Assembly: GCF_014395225.1 (NCBI RefSeq)
Contig: NZ_CP060723.1
Coordinates: 6,262,001 to 6,326,000, forward strand
Direction of reading: 5' to 3'
Length of the DNA: 64,000 nucleotides
Origin: Pedobacter roseus
Lineage (GTDB): Bacteria > Bacteroidota > Bacteroidia > Sphingobacteriales > Sphingobacteriaceae
Shown here: positions 4,575-31,442 of the stretch, piece after piece
Layout of the letters: each line of letters opens with the position of its first letter
Numbering within the stretch: the stretch's first letter is position 1
Made by a program: the position numbers and the translations under genes
The notes under the pieces: model-generated
What the model was told of the DNA's origin: nothing
What the model saw: only the letters and a program-made list of their open reading frames with translations
Database searches by the model: none

Positions 4575-5084
4575 TGTTTCCAGCGTTTATAATATTTTTT
4601 TTAAGGAAATGAGCAGTTCCACTCTTTTGGAGGTTTTCAGTCCCGCTCACGCTTCTGCCGATGAAGAATCGGCATCTCGCTTCGATCGGGTTTAGAGACA
4701 AAGGATAAGTACAATTGGCTAAACCTAGCAAAGTGCAGTATTTGGCGTGATGTAAGGAACAGGCCTTTCAGTTATAAACCTGACAGTAGCGGCAGCTCCC
4801 GATTTTTTTATCAGGACTAAAGCGAATGGCAGGGCTTCACTGGCCAAGAACAACAAAACGTTCGTTTTCAAATAAAAAGGATTAAGATTTAGCATTACTA
4901 AATTTAATATCTAGATAAGCTGTATCATGTACTACAATAAGTAAAACTTCTGCAATTATGACTAACATCATTTCGGTTATAAGTATTTAGCCCTATTTTT
5001 GCTATGGAAGGATATATGGCGAAAGGTTTAAGGCGTAAGGTTATATCTTGATACTCACTTCTCCATACTTGATACTTATTAAAC
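4575..5084. other. 510-bp intergenic region with repeat debris
   Basis: No convincing gene. It contains fragments of dispersed elements: a tgccgatgaagaatcggca hairpin near 4657-4675, atcgggtttag at about 4686-4696 (resembling the right flank of the IS110 insertions), and aatggcagggc near 4827. A putative regulatory stretch lies just before 5085. Short open frames here lack coding character. Confidence 0.6.
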
Positions 5085-16202: not shown

Positions 16203-16276
16203 GGAAGCCATACCGCAGCACCTGATTAATCTAAACCTGTATTCTATGGTTAATCCAAGCAATTTCTTATTTTTTT

Positions 16277-17284
16277 TTATGCGACCAATTGATAGTCTTT
16301 TACATATGGCCTGTCATTCGCTACAGCCGAGAATGCCCTACTGACAAGCTTATTTCTAAGTACATTCAAGATTGATGAATGATGTTTCCCTTCTTTTATT
16401 TTTCTATCATAATATCTCTTAAATTCATTGTCTTTTTTAATGGTGTTCAATGCGCACATTGTCAATAAGGTTTTGATCCGTTTATTGGCCAGGTGACTGA
16501 CCTTGGGTTTTGTGTTAAGGGTTGTTCCCGATTTTTTACCAAAAGGGGCCAGGCCGCAGTAACAAGCAAACTTTCTTGGGTTATCAAATAGGGAAAACCC
16601 TTGGGTAAGAACCACAATGAACATTGCGGTCTGTGGTCCGATACAATATACTGAGTTGACGAGTCTATATTGTTTTTCCAATAAGGCATCCTCCTTTACA
16701 TAACACAAAAGTTTTTCCTCTAACAAACTTATCTTATTATCATATTCGTTGATTAATGCCTTTCTGATTTGCAGGGTGAACTTAGCAGATTCCCTGTCAA
16801 ATTCCTCAAGCTCTCCACAAACATTCTTCAGTGCGGTCTGTTGCTTTACCAGCTGTCTCCTGCATGATAATAGGTATTTGATCTTGCTTATCGTCTTGCT
16901 GGGCATACTAAATAAAAAGGCTTTCCGCCTATGGATAAAACCATATTCTGCTATAGCTGCAGCATCTGCCTTGTCTGACTTACCTCTTTTGAGCCCCAGG
17001 GACCGCTTTAATCTGAGCGCATTCTCAACCCAGAGGTTTCCACCCTGATCACTAAAAAAAGTACACGCAGGAAGTGCATAGATTCCAGTATCTTCTGCGC
17101 AAAAGAACATATCTGATATGGACAGTTTGGTAAGATGATGGATCCAGGTAATCATCTCTGTATAGCCAGCATCACTGTTGGCAAAAGTGCCATGGAAACA
17201 TTCATCGGGATCCTCAGCAAGAAAAAAGACTACATCTGTTTTCAGTTTTGAAATGTCGATGCCTGCAAATAATTTGTAATTCAT
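16277..17284 (-). CDS. IS110 family transposase (copy 1)
   Basis: 335 aa. N-terminal RuvC-like DEDD domain: D10 (FAGIDISK), E64 (CAEDTG), D104 and D107 (SDKADA). Central coiled coil about 130-200. C-terminal transposase_20 domain with CIGPQTA, CGLAPFGKKSG and KVSHLANKR; S263 is my tentative match to the catalytic Ser. Encodes the recombinase that, with a bridge RNA, inserts the circular element. Protein identical to copy 2, so the duplication is recent and the gene is intact. Confidence 0.95.
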   Translation of the reverse strand: MNYKLFAGIDISKLKTDVVFFLAEDPDECFHGTFANSDAGYTEMITWIHHLTKLSISDMFFCAEDTGIYALPACTFFSDQGGNLWVENALRLKRSLGLKRGKSDKADAAAIAEYGFIHRRKAFLFSMPSKTISKIKYLLSCRRQLVKQQTALKNVCGELEEFDRESAKFTLQIRKALINEYDNKISLLEEKLLCYVKEDALLEKQYRLVNSVYCIGPQTAMFIVVLTQGFSLFDNPRKFACYCGLAPFGKKSGTTLNTKPKVSHLANKRIKTLLTMCALNTIKKDNEFKRYYDRKIKEGKHHSSILNVLRNKLVSRAFSAVANDRPYVKDYQLVA

Positions 17285-17386
17285 AAATTTGGTTATCTTA
17301 AGTTGAGATTAAACCTTCATGTTGAATAAAACTAAATCCCTTAATGGTCCTGCCAGACTAAAATTCTATATGGTTCTTGTTCAACA

Positions 17387-17454
17387 AACGGCAGTGCTCT
17401 AATACAGGTTTTAGATCTTTAATCTAGACAGAGTAATAGTGCAGCACTGCCGTT
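17387..17454 (-). ncRNA. Candidate bridge-RNA loop in IS copy 1
   Basis: Mirror of 30170-30237 in copy 2: a 12-bp perfect stem (AACGGCAGTGCT / AGCACTGCCGTT) closing a 44-nt loop, located in the non-coding end upstream of the transposase. Confidence 0.5.
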
Positions 17455-17512
17455 AAGGTTTTATATATTCAAAGTTCATATATTTTTAAGTACTCACAAA
17501 CCTAAGGGACAG

Positions 17513-19136: not shown

Positions 19137-19341
19137 ATTCCCCTCTCCCAGAGGGGTGTCCGCAGGACGGGGTGTCTGTATGTGTTTTTTGAAAACGTTG
19201 GTTCCTGTTCTCTTCGGGTGCTTCAGCCCTGCTGTCCACTTTATCCCGAGGAAGAATCGGGATGTTCGTTTCCATCAGGTTTATTTACAGCGGGTTGTAG
19301 TCCTTTTGCTATTGAAAACTTACATTTGAAAAAAAATCTTA

Positions 19342-26510: not shown

Positions 26511-26659
26511 GGGGGAGGACTAAAGCGGAAAGACCAAAGACCAAAGACCAAAGCTGAAAGCCCGAATTAATAGTTGGTGCTCCTATTGCATCCTGCAATC
26601 TCTGTTTCTTGCATTTTCTTCATTTTTAAACCCGACAGCAGTGGAAATCCTTTTTGCTG

Positions 26660-26685
26660 CAGAAGCTCCGTGCCTCAGCATGACA
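26660..26685. repeat. 26-bp repeat relative (cagaagctccgtgcctcag...)
   Basis: Degenerate copy of the arm of the inverted repeat at 30008-30071. Confidence 0.6.
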
Positions 26686-26892
26686 GGATCGCAAAAAGAT
26701 TGAAACGAATGGCGGGAACAAACTTAAATTTTAGCACAGCCACTGCTTTCCAAATAATCAAAATATTGGCTCAAAATTGAACAAACGTTTGTCTTGATTG
26801 CAAGCCGATAATCTACCTTTTTTGTCGCTTTTAAGTATAAATAAGACGCCTTTTTTACACTGATTGATAGTGAAATACAGCTTCATTTTTGC

Positions 26893-26925: not shown

Positions 26926-29802
26926 ATGAGCTTAAATATCCACTACAAGGAAGATTTTCAAAATCGTCATATTGCGCCAAATGAGGCAGATACAGCCGAA
27001 ATGTTGCAAACTGTTGGCGTAAATTCTATTGATGAGCTGATTGAACAAACTGTTCCGGCGGCAATTAGGTTAAAACAGCCTTTAAATTTGCCTGCTGCGA
27101 AATCAGAAACTGAATATCTTGGTGCTTTAAAACAAACTTCATTGTTAAATAAAGTTTTCAAAAGCTTTATCGGTCAGGGTTATTATGATACCATTACCCC
27201 GGGTGTAATTTTACGTAACGTATTCGAAAATCCAGGATGGTACACACAATATACGCCATACCAGGCAGAAATTGCACAGGGCCGTTTACAGGCTTTATTA
27301 AATTTCCAAACCATGGTTATAGATTTAACCGGGATGGAAATTGCCAATGCATCTTTATTGGATGAAGGTACTGCTGCTGCTGAGGCCATGTTTATGCAAT
27401 ACAGCTTGCGTAAAAACCAGGCAGCTAAAAAATTCTTCGTTTCGGAACTTGTTTTTCCTCAAACGATCGATATTTTAAAAACACGCGCCAATCCTTACGG
27501 CATTGAACTGGTTATCGGAAGTCATTTAGATTTCGTTGCTACTGAAGAATTTTTTGGTGCAATTGTTCAGTACCCTGCAGGAAACGGTGAAGTTTTCGAT
27601 TATAAAAACTTTGCAGCTGAATTACACAGCAAAAATATTAAATTAACGGTAGCTGCCGATATTTTAAGCTTAACCTTATTAATGCCTCCGGGTGAGTGGG
27701 GAGCTGATGTGGTAGTAGGTACTACACAGCGCCTGGGTATACCAATGGGTTTTGGTGGACCGCATGCTGCATTTTTTGCGACTAAAGAAGAATATAAACG
27801 TAACATCCCTGGCCGTATAATCGGTGTAACCATCGATAGTCATGGCGATTACGCTTTACGTATGGCTTTGCAAACCCGCGAGCAACACATTCGTAGAGAT
27901 AAGGCAACTTCAAATATATGTACTGCGCAGGCATTGCTAGCTATTATGGCTGGTTTCTACGCTGCTTACCACGGTCCGAAAGGATTAAAAGCCATTGCAG
28001 AACGTACACACGGTTTGGCCATCAGTTTAGCCTCTACTTTAAAAGGTTTAGGTTTTGAACAGTTAAACTCAGCTTATTTTGACACCATTCGTTTCGATTT
28101 AGGTGATTTAAAAGGCGGTATCCATTCTGGATGTATCGATAACGAAATCAACTTAAACTATGTTGGTAACGTAGCCACCATTTCGTTCGACGAAACCAGC
28201 ACTTTCGAAGATGTAGCTTTAATTGCTAAAATCTTTGCAAAGGTTAAAGCCATTGCTGCCGATCAGGTTGAGGTGGTAGAAAATGTAGAAACCGTTATTC
28301 CAGCCGCTTTACAACGTACTACGGCTTATTTAACCCACCCAATTTTTAACTCGCACCACTCAGAACATGAGATGTTGCGTTATATCAAGTCATTAGAAGC
28401 AAAAGATTTATCGCTTTGCCACTCAATGATTGCTTTGGGTAGCTGTACCATGAAATTAAATGCTACCGCAGAAATGATTCCGGTTACCTGGTCTCACTTT
28501 GGCCGTGTGCATCCATTTGCCCCTGCCGATCAGGTATTGGGTTACTATTCGGTTTTCAACGAATTGGATAAATGGTTAAGTGAAATTACCGGTTTTGCGG
28601 CAATGAGCTTACAGCCAAACGCTGGTGCTCAGGGCGAATATGCAGGTTTAATGGTTATCCGTGCTTATCACCACGATAGAGGCGATTTTCACCGTAACGT
28701 AGCATTAATTCCAGCTTCGGCACACGGAACCAACCCTGCTTCTGCGGCAATGGCCGACATGAAAATTGTAGTGGTTAAATCTTTAGAAAACGGTAACATC
28801 GATGTTGAAGATTTAAAAGCGAAAGCAGAATTACATAAAGATAATTTATCGTGTTTAATGGTAACTTATCCATCTACACACGGGGTGTTCGAAGAAAGCA
28901 TTATCGAAATCTGCGAAACCATCCACGCTAACGGCGGACAGGTTTATATGGATGGTGCCAACATGAACGCACAGGTTGGTTTAACAAGCCCAGCCAATAT
29001 CGGCGCCGATGTTTGTCACTTAAACTTACACAAAACTTTCTGTATCCCTCACGGTGGAGGAGGTCCTGGTATGGGTCCAATTGGTGTGGCGAAACACCTG
29101 GTTCCTTATCTTCCAGGTCATGCTGTGGTTGATATCGACAAAGGAAAATCTATTTCTGCAGTTTCATCTGCACCATGGGGTTCGGCTTCGATCTTAATCA
29201 TCTCTCATGCTTATATTGCGATGATGGGTGCTAATGGTTTAACCAATGCCACTAAATATGCGATTTTAAACGCAAACTACATGAAAGCGCGTTTAGAGCA
29301 ACACTATCCGGTACTTTATTCAGGCGCTCAGGGACGTTGTGCTCACGAGATGATTTTAGATTGCCGTTCGTTCAAAGCTTTCGGAATTGAAGTAACTGAT
29401 ATTGCAAAACGTTTAATGGATTACGGTTTCCACGCACCAACAGTATCATTCCCGGTTGCGGGTACCTTAATGGTTGAGCCTACAGAATCAGAGCCTAAAC
29501 ATGAGTTAGATCGTTTCTGTGATGCACTAATCGCCATTAAAAACGAAATTACTTCGGTAGAAAACGGAACTTTAGATAAAACAGATAATCCTTTAAAAAA
29601 TGCACCTCATACGGTTTCGGTTATTACCGCTAACGAATGGGATCATGCTTATAGCCGTCAAACTGCTGCGTTCCCACTTCCTTATGTGTTAGAGCGTAAG
29701 TTCTGGCCTTCAGTTGGGCGTGTTAACGATAGCCATGGTGATAGGGCATTAATCTGCGCTTGTCCGCCGATTGAGAGTTACTTAGAAGAGATCGTTCCTT
29801 AA
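26926..29802 (+). CDS. gcvP: Glycine dehydrogenase (decarboxylating), P-protein
   Basis: 958 aa, the single-chain (fused) form. PLP enzyme of the glycine cleavage system: decarboxylates glycine and passes the aminomethyl group to lipoyl-GcvH. The PLP-binding Lys lies in [19 protein letters not shown]-terminal half has the inactive PLP-like fold, the C-terminal half the active one. No gcvT or gcvH is adjacent. Strong terminator downstream. Confidence 0.98.
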
Positions 29803-29940: not shown

Positions 29941-30007
29941 GGAAATGAATACCAGTTTTCCATCGGATGTTGCAGCCCTGCCATTCGCTTCAATCTTTTT
30001 GTGGTAC

Positions 30008-30071
30008 TGTCATGCTGAGGTACGAAGCATCTGCATGCTATGAAACAGATGCTTCGTACCTCAGCATGACA
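30008..30071. repeat. Perfect 26-bp inverted repeat with a 12-nt loop
   Basis: Left arm 30008-30033 and right arm 30046-30071 are exact reverse complements. Single arms recur at 12557-12582 and 26660-26685, so this is a dispersed element. Lies 41 bp outside IS copy 2. Confidence 0.8.
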
Positions 30072-30169
30072 TAGTATTCAAGGTTGCTGCAAACAAAAAG
30101 GATTTTCGCTGCTGTCCCTTAGGTTTGTGAGTACTTAAAAATATATGAACTTTGAATATATAAAACCTT

Positions 30170-30237
30170 AACGGCAGTGCTGCACTATTACTCTGTCTAG
30201 ATTAAAGATCTAAAACCTGTATTAGAGCACTGCCGTT
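30170..30237 (+). ncRNA. Candidate IS110 bridge-RNA target loop
   Basis: Within the 228-bp non-coding end upstream of the transposase. Perfect 12-bp stem (30170-30181 with 30226-30237) encloses a 44-nt loop. The loop holds CTGTC (30193-30197), identical to the bases just left of the insertion, and CTAAAACCTGTATT (30210-30223), nearly complementary to the right side AATACAGGTTTAG. One guide matching the top strand and one complementary to it is the arrangement known for IS621 bridge RNA. The exact RNA ends are not determinable here. Confidence 0.5.
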
Positions 30238-30339
30238 TGTTGAACAAGAACCATATAGAATTTTAGTCTGGCAGGACCATTAAGGGATTTAGTTTTATTC
30301 AACATGAAGGTTTAATCTCAACTTAAGATAACCAAATTT

Positions 30340-31347
30340 ATGAATTACAAATTATTTGCAGGCATCGACATTTCAAAACTGAAAACAGATGTAGTCTTTT
30401 TTCTTGCTGAGGATCCCGATGAATGTTTCCATGGCACTTTTGCCAACAGTGATGCTGGCTATACAGAGATGATTACCTGGATCCATCATCTTACCAAACT
30501 GTCCATATCAGATATGTTCTTTTGCGCAGAAGATACTGGAATCTATGCACTTCCTGCGTGTACTTTTTTTAGTGATCAGGGTGGAAACCTCTGGGTTGAG
30601 AATGCGCTCAGATTAAAGCGGTCCCTGGGGCTCAAAAGAGGTAAGTCAGACAAGGCAGATGCTGCAGCTATAGCAGAATATGGTTTTATCCATAGGCGGA
30701 AAGCCTTTTTATTTAGTATGCCCAGCAAGACGATAAGCAAGATCAAATACCTATTATCATGCAGGAGACAGCTGGTAAAGCAACAGACCGCACTGAAGAA
30801 TGTTTGTGGAGAGCTTGAGGAATTTGACAGGGAATCTGCTAAGTTCACCCTGCAAATCAGAAAGGCATTAATCAACGAATATGATAATAAGATAAGTTTG
30901 TTAGAGGAAAAACTTTTGTGTTATGTAAAGGAGGATGCCTTATTGGAAAAACAATATAGACTCGTCAACTCAGTATATTGTATCGGACCACAGACCGCAA
31001 TGTTCATTGTGGTTCTTACCCAAGGGTTTTCCCTATTTGATAACCCAAGAAAGTTTGCTTGTTACTGCGGCCTGGCCCCTTTTGGTAAAAAATCGGGAAC
31101 AACCCTTAACACAAAACCCAAGGTCAGTCACCTGGCCAATAAACGGATCAAAACCTTATTGACAATGTGCGCATTGAACACCATTAAAAAAGACAATGAA
31201 TTTAAGAGATATTATGATAGAAAAATAAAAGAAGGGAAACATCATTCATCAATCTTGAATGTACTTAGAAATAAGCTTGTCAGTAGGGCATTCTCGGCTG
31301 TAGCGAATGACAGGCCATATGTAAAAGACTATCAATTGGTCGCATAA
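30340..31347 (+). CDS. IS110 family transposase (copy 2)
   Basis: 335 aa, identical to the copy at 16277-17284, with the same DEDD residues (D10, E64, D104, D107) and C-terminal KVSHLANKR. Intact, so potentially active. It ends 46 bp before the element edge and is convergent with the lipoprotein gene at 31443. Confidence 0.95.
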   Translation: MNYKLFAGIDISKLKTDVVFFLAEDPDECFHGTFANSDAGYTEMITWIHHLTKLSISDMFFCAEDTGIYALPACTFFSDQGGNLWVENALRLKRSLGLKRGKSDKADAAAIAEYGFIHRRKAFLFSMPSKTISKIKYLLSCRRQLVKQQTALKNVCGELEEFDRESAKFTLQIRKALINEYDNKISLLEEKLLCYVKEDALLEKQYRLVNSVYCIGPQTAMFIVVLTQGFSLFDNPRKFACYCGLAPFGKKSGTTLNTKPKVSHLANKRIKTLLTMCALNTIKKDNEFKRYYDRKIKEGKHHSSILNVLRNKLVSRAFSAVANDRPYVKDYQLVA

Positions 31348-31442
31348 AAAAAAATAAGAAATTGCTTGGATTAACCATAGAATACAGGTTTAGGGAGGAG
31401 GGGCTGGGGGGGTAAAGGTATTTAACTAAGCTGTTGCTTTAT

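What the first reader, a model, noticed from the sequence alone, without database searches (positions are those of the whole stretch)
30112..30339. IS110 non-coding end carries a bridge-RNA-like loop that appears to spell out the target
A 12-bp perfect stem (30170-30181 with 30226-30237) closes a 44-nt loop holding CTGTC, same as the left flank of both copies, and CTAAAACCTGTATT, near-complementary to the right junction. One same-sense and one antisense guide is the arrangement established for IS621 bridge RNA, and the long non-coding end lies upstream of the transposase as in that group.
Basis: partly seen in the sequence, partly recalled or inferred. Interest (0 to 1): 0.65.

Follow-up and report, generated by a model that had tools for sequence, protein, structure and literature searches.

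The report
Bridge RNA of a Pedobacter IS110
A jumping gene in a Pedobacter-type bacterium carries, ahead of its enzyme gene, a predicted small RNA whose loops spell out both the place it inserts into and its own ends, much like the known IS621 'bridge RNA', with an unusual twist at the crossover point.

Summary
The element (30117-31385; four near-identical copies in the genome) is an IS110-group insertion sequence. The CTGTC match alone is chance-level; the 11-nt antisense match is not, and comparison settles it. In related Bacteroidota elements, 20 distinct left guides (72 insertions) and 18 distinct right guides (60 insertions) match their own sites far better than other elements' sites (0 of 10,000 permutations each). 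The target is the end of a repeated palindromic element: 12 empty sites read CTGTC-N-GGTTTAG. The circular form would assemble a Bacteroidota-type promoter. One correction: of the 'antisense guide', only AAACCT reads the target; GTATT reads the element's own right end. One new point: in 25 of 56 insertions donor and target cores differ in the first base; there the right target guide pairs with the donor base (25 of 25), never the target base, and the right donor guide matches the target base in 18 of 25, the donor base in 5. That extends IS621's 'handshake' into the core. No RNA or activity was measured.

The parts
30117..31385 (+). IS110-group element, 1269 bp (RD start to donor core)
   Evidence: Ends fixed by aligning four genome copies, 12 empty sites and nine copies of a relative; coordinates checked.
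30340..31347 (+). DEDD/serine recombinase, 335 aa
   Evidence: PF01548 and PF02371; aligns with ISCro4 (E 3.2e-18) and IS621 (E 4.2e-16) of solved structures. D10, E64, D104, D107 and S252 align with chain residues that correspond to IS621 D11, E60, D102, D105 and S241 if the chain carries two extra N-terminal residues (my inference).
30134..30305 (+). predicted bridge RNA (start inferred from the -7 motif; end not mapped)
   Evidence: Minimum-energy fold is 5' hairpin + target-binding loop + donor-binding loop, z -3.29; the centroid lacks the 5' hairpin. Model R1 built from it and relatives finds it in 56 of 399 family genomes.
30170..30237 (+). target-binding loop; stem 30170-30181/30226-30237, inner hairpin 30198-30202/30208-30212
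   Evidence: Paired changes on both sides at 4 of 12 stem pairs in six close relatives and 9 of 12 in eleven.
30189..30197 (+). left target guide TACTCTGTC (last two = target core TC)
   Evidence: Ends in CTGTC like the left flank of all four copies; guide-target test across relatives.
30213..30218 (+). right target guide AAACCT, antisense to target AGGTTT
   Evidence: 6 of 6 at all four copies; guide-target test across relatives.
30219..30223 (+). core guide GT and handshake ATT: complementary to donor AAT-AC, not to target CTG-TC
30239..30303 (+). donor-binding loop (stem GTTGAA/TTCAAC and inner pairs)
   Evidence: Pairs invariant in six close relatives, so no covariation there; in eleven relatives 8 of 11 stem pairs and 3 of 3 inner pairs show changes on both sides.
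30255..30261 (+). left donor guide ATAGAAT, same sense as the right end of the element
   Evidence: Equals LD 31377-31383; not significant in this element alone: 469 of 2000 shuffled loops match as long a stretch.
30281..30289 (+). right donor guide TAAGG, core guide GA (pairs with target core TC), handshake TT
   Evidence: Antisense to RD CCTTA at 30117-30121; not significant alone (189 of 2000 shuffles); core and handshake test across relatives.
30108..30116 (+). left target GCTGCTG and target core TC
31386..31393 (+). right target AGGTTTAG
   Evidence: Shared with 12 empty sites CTGTC-N-GGTTTAG.
30117..30123 (+). right donor (RD) CCTTAGG
31377..31385 (+). left donor (LD) ATAGAAT and donor core AC
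31365..31368 (+). -33-like half (CTTG) of the promoter formed in the circle
30120..30127 (+). -7-like half (TAGGTTTG) of that promoter
   Evidence: YTTG-N20-TAnnTTTG across the joined ends in 17 of 22 distinct junctions.
16239..17507 (-). second copy, identical over 1269 bp; left flank ATTCCTGTC, right flank AGGTTTAG

Best explanation
The left non-coding end of this IS110-group element encodes a bridge RNA. After excision the joined right and left ends form a promoter that transcribes it. Its first loop pairs with both strands of the target (left guide same sense, right guide antisense), its second loop pairs likewise with the element's own joined ends, and the DEDD/serine recombinase exchanges strands just after a C. 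Insertion falls at the end of a repeated palindromic element, CTGTC|(A/G/T)GGTTTAG. Shown by sequence: ends, target, loops, guide-target co-change, stem covariation. Inferred: transcription, binding, strand cleavage and order of events, taken over from IS621.
For: Recombinase family and catalytic residues. Four copies and 12 empty sites fix the ends; a pattern allowing 1-4 nt between CTGTC and GGTTTAG found 12 sites, each with exactly one base, reversed control 0. Stem covariation: 22 of 33 pairs with two-sided changes against 10.7 shuffled, 0 of 500; slid versions at most 12. Guides against own sites: left 4.72 of 7 against 1.91 for others' sites, right 4.59 of 6 against 1.46, 0 of 10,000 permutations each. 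Within clades single-base co-changes: right guide TATGAAAT with ATTTC (5 of 5) and TATGAGAT with ATCTC (12 of 12). Promoter motif across the circle junction in 17 of 22 distinct junctions, with -33 in place before the integrated left end in only 2 of those 17. Model R1 hits 56 of 399 family genomes, 10 of 25 genera, and 12 of 15 further named or pooled loci at E below 1e-8, including Phocaeicola and Parabacteroides.
Against: No RNA or recombination data. In the window element alone CTGTC and both donor-guide matches are within chance. The left guide of the closest family matches poorly beyond CTGTC: own score 2.9 of 7, rank 4 of 20. L165 (1 of 7, rank 11) and L147/L148 (1.5 of 7, rank 14) fail the left test, the latter through a one-base slip of the alignment. 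The permutation test ignores relatedness. The shared C at the junctions was built into how single-copy ends were located. Five of 22 junctions lack the -7 motif (TAGATTAG), and the motif alone is unspecific (2 in the window, 1.2 expected).
Confidence: 0.93

Rival explanations
1. The loop is a cis-acting DNA or RNA regulatory hairpin (attenuator or protein-binding site) and resemblance to the flanks is inherited coincidence.
For: Stem conserved; in the window element alone three of four guide matches are within chance.
Against: Guides change with targets in many elements; conserved stem encloses variable loop segments; fixed one-base spacing at 12 empty sites.
Confidence: 0.04
2. Target choice is made by the protein reading the repeat, and the RNA only serves the donor side or expression.
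For: All copies of the window family sit in one kind of repeat, so protein recognition would look the same there.
Against: Elements with related recombinases use unrelated targets that match their own loops, e.g. TGTCATTTC and GTCAAGGCC groups.
Confidence: 0.03
3. Decayed, inactive bridge RNA element.
For: Some relatives are broken: stops inside the frame in two and contig-end fragments in others.
Against: Four near-identical copies with open frames and identical non-coding ends point to recent movement.
Confidence: 0.1

Closest known systems
IS621 bridge RNA (IS110 group; PMC11208160, PMC11208158)
   Same: Recombinase domains; RNA in the left end; 5' hairpin, target loop then donor loop; same-sense left and antisense right guides; strand break just after the core assumed; promoter made at the circle junction; palindromic repeats as targets; handshake positions.
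   Different: Core ends in C, not T; first core base often differs between donor and target; handshake reaches into the core; promoter of the Bacteroidota type instead of sigma-70.
ISEc21 and IS1111 seekRNAs (PMC11187229; listing, abstract and passages seen)
   Same: Non-coding region sets the target; IS110 type has it upstream.
   Different: IS1111 members have it downstream with subterminal inverted repeats; the RNAs named there are shorter (74 nt for ISEc21).
ISCro4 (PDB 9t56)
   Same: Best sequence match among solved structures.
   Different: Paper not seen; guides not compared.

Membership tests
[quoted passage not shown]
IS110 family, IS110 group | Long non-coding end upstream of the recombinase gene (IS1111: downstream) | tested here: met
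   223 nt from the left end to the start codon, 38 nt from the stop codon to the right end, by the ends.
IS621-type bridge RNA | RNA with two loops, each with a same-sense left and an antisense right guide for target and donor | tested here: met
   Target loop. Donor loop: structure; donor guides match but were partly used to locate the right ends, so only multi-copy groups are independent.
IS621-type bridge RNA | Same core dinucleotide (CT) in donor and target, paired by all four guides | tested here: not met
   Core ends in C; first base differs in 25 of 56 insertions. This concerns IS621 relatives, not the whole IS110 family.
IS621-type bridge RNA | Handshake pairs: position 7 of donor with target loop and of target with donor loop | tested here: met
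   51 of 51 (own DNA 0 of 51) and 50 of 51 with wobble (41 Watson-Crick; own DNA 5 of 51 with wobble); 5 of 56 insertions left out by hand.
IS621-type bridge RNA | Promoter rebuilt at the circle junction | tested here: met
   As a sequence motif only.
IS621-type bridge RNA | RNA is transcribed, binds the recombinase and is needed for recombination | not testable with these tools
   Needs experiment.
IS1111 group | Non-coding region downstream, subterminal inverted repeats of 7-17 bp | tested here: inconclusive
   Downstream region not met (38 nt); inverted repeats not tested.

The most novel reading that the evidence does not exclude
In this Bacteroidota clade donor and target need share only one core base. 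The 3' guide of each loop is written for the product, not the substrate: it pairs with the partner DNA at positions 7 and 8, so substrates are mismatched there until strands exchange and matched afterwards, which could drive recombination forward and let target cores drift freely.
Probability: 0.65. Interest if true: 0.5.

Novelty: new variant of a known kind. Interest (0 to 1): 0.4.

Why it matters
It adds a Bacteroidota branch of RNA-guided recombinases with natural target retuning visible across related species. The split core is a natural experiment that IS621, with the same core on both sides, cannot offer: it tells which guide position reads which DNA molecule during strand exchange, and it predicts how to choose guides when donor and target cores differ.

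Tried and rejected
Alignment used a wrongly oriented locus and was discarded. Rfam at gathering scores gave nothing at the element. An early reading with core 'CN' and donor 'CC' (notes) was dropped for core xC once the G121 and G368 groups were compared. The idea that tandem target loops in some relatives give two targets found no support: in G368-type elements the two loops share the left guide and differ in the right one (GAAGC against GGGCC), and of 16 matches to their right end in 12 of 149 genomes, 12 continue GGG and none GAAG (the pattern misses ends with T at its last place, and not all matches were shown to have two loops). My closing note says 11 of 11; the recount is 12 of 16. Eight more distant loci were not counted in the tests: left ends were located in too few; the right-guide core agreed with the right end in five of six with a candidate end, and L177 disagreed (GC against AC, a possible wobble).

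Rows dropped: of 80 loci scanned L095 gave no match at the cut-off; of 79, 7 had no left end and 19 no usable right end (16 none, 3 with a mismatch). L142's left end was mis-set and moved by hand; the L147/L148 core was shifted by one by hand; L135, L140, L147, L148 and L165 were left out by hand.

Full report
What was checked. The stem, loop and both loop segments are at the stated places. The element lies in a 6.33-Mb single-contig genome that holds four copies. Their non-coding ends are identical; the copies differ at three bases and one A-run length. The two window copies are identical over 1269 bp.

Ends and target. All four copies begin after CTGTC and end before AGGTTTA. Twelve empty sites in the same genome read CTGTC-N-GGTTTAG (N = G 6, A 5, T 1), with 0 for the reversed pattern. 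By eye all 12 and the occupied sites are ends of one kind of interspersed repeat with an inner palindrome. A search with one copy gave 38 matches, with 40 of 68 candidates scored. In nine copies of a relative the base after C at the right junction is G six times and A three times, so that base comes from the target and the exchange falls after C.

RNA. The whole end folded together does not form the second loop, because its right donor guide pairs with the element's own start. In eleven relatives 22 of 33 pairs change on both sides against 10.7 in shuffles (0 of 500), and slid versions reach at most 12. One measure, further pair types, is not unusual (51 of 500). In the six closest, two-sided changes are 5 against 3.0 (42 of 500) and the second loop's stem does not vary. 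I drew the structure from these sequences, which favours it over slid versions.

Guides against sites. Guides were read by alignment position and ends were found without using the target guides. Left guides: 20 distinct, 72 insertions, 4.72 of 7 own against 1.91 others. Right guides: 18 distinct, 60 insertions, 4.59 of 6 against 1.46. No permutation of 10,000 reached either. Examples: TGTCATTTC, GTCAAGGCC, GTCAAGGGC and TGTCATTGC next to the same letters in the flank; right guides AAACCT and AAACCC with AGGTTT and GGGTTT. One relative (G081, nine copies, and L067) with a CCT guide sits at AGG four times and GGG six times, where G-U pairing would do.

Core and handshake. Of 56 insertions with both ends, the left guide's core equals the left junction in 53 and the right guide's core equals the right junction in 56. 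Donor and target cores differ in 25; there the left guide follows the target in 23, the right guide the donor in 25 and the target in none. The right donor guide equals the target core in 18 and the donor core in 5. The five against are the four G368/G382 insertions and L135, whose left end is one base ambiguous. At position 7, over 51 insertions in 14 guide sets, the target loop pairs with the donor in 51 (target 0) and the donor loop with the target in 41, or 50 with G-U pairs (donor 1, or 5). At position 8 the donor loop pairs with the target in 45 (48 with G-U) and with the donor in 30 (31). Donor cores fall in few lineages (AC or TC), so the right-guide agreement reflects few independent events; the donor loop changing with the target is the stronger part. 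IS621 work reported such pairs at position 7 and showed that pairing with the own DNA blocks exchange (PMC11208158, section 11 read; other passages). I saw no statement on differing cores in the parts read or the listings; that is not proof of absence, since preprints and most subscription papers are not held.

Promoter. Joining the element's ends gives YTTG-N20-TAnnTTTG in 17 of 22 distinct junctions (one of the 17, L142, with a left end mis-set at that step); the integrated left end has a TTG at similar spacing in 2 of 17. The consensus TTTG/TAnnTTTG is cited in PMC7366714 (passages), which also notes that the -33 motif was not found in Flavobacterium johnsoniae. IS621 likewise makes a promoter at its circle junction (PMC11208160 section 5).

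Verdict. A bridge RNA element of the IS110 group, new to this host, with a split core. Mechanism beyond sequence is inferred from IS621.

Noticed in passing
L139 344-450 with 458-605; also L140, L141, L152, L153, L093, L080, L081: Second target-loop match upstream of the first inside or next to the left end. In G368/G382 elements the two loops share the left guide and differ in the right guide. L095 seems to have two loops as well (by eye).
   Followed up: partly
window 30005-30072: Near-perfect hairpin (tgtcatgctgaggtacgaagcatctg...) inserted inside the repeat that the element targets; similar pieces elsewhere in the genome.
   Followed up: no
window 4775-4836 and 19225-19283: Two more copies of the interspersed palindromic repeat.
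   Followed up: no
window 26624-26723: Flavo-1 RNA upstream of the large frame 26926-29802, which looks like glycine dehydrogenase (gcvP) by recall; not searched.
   Followed up: no
L135 and L140, left junction: One extra C at the left junction compared with sister copies, perhaps slippage at the exchange point.
   Followed up: no
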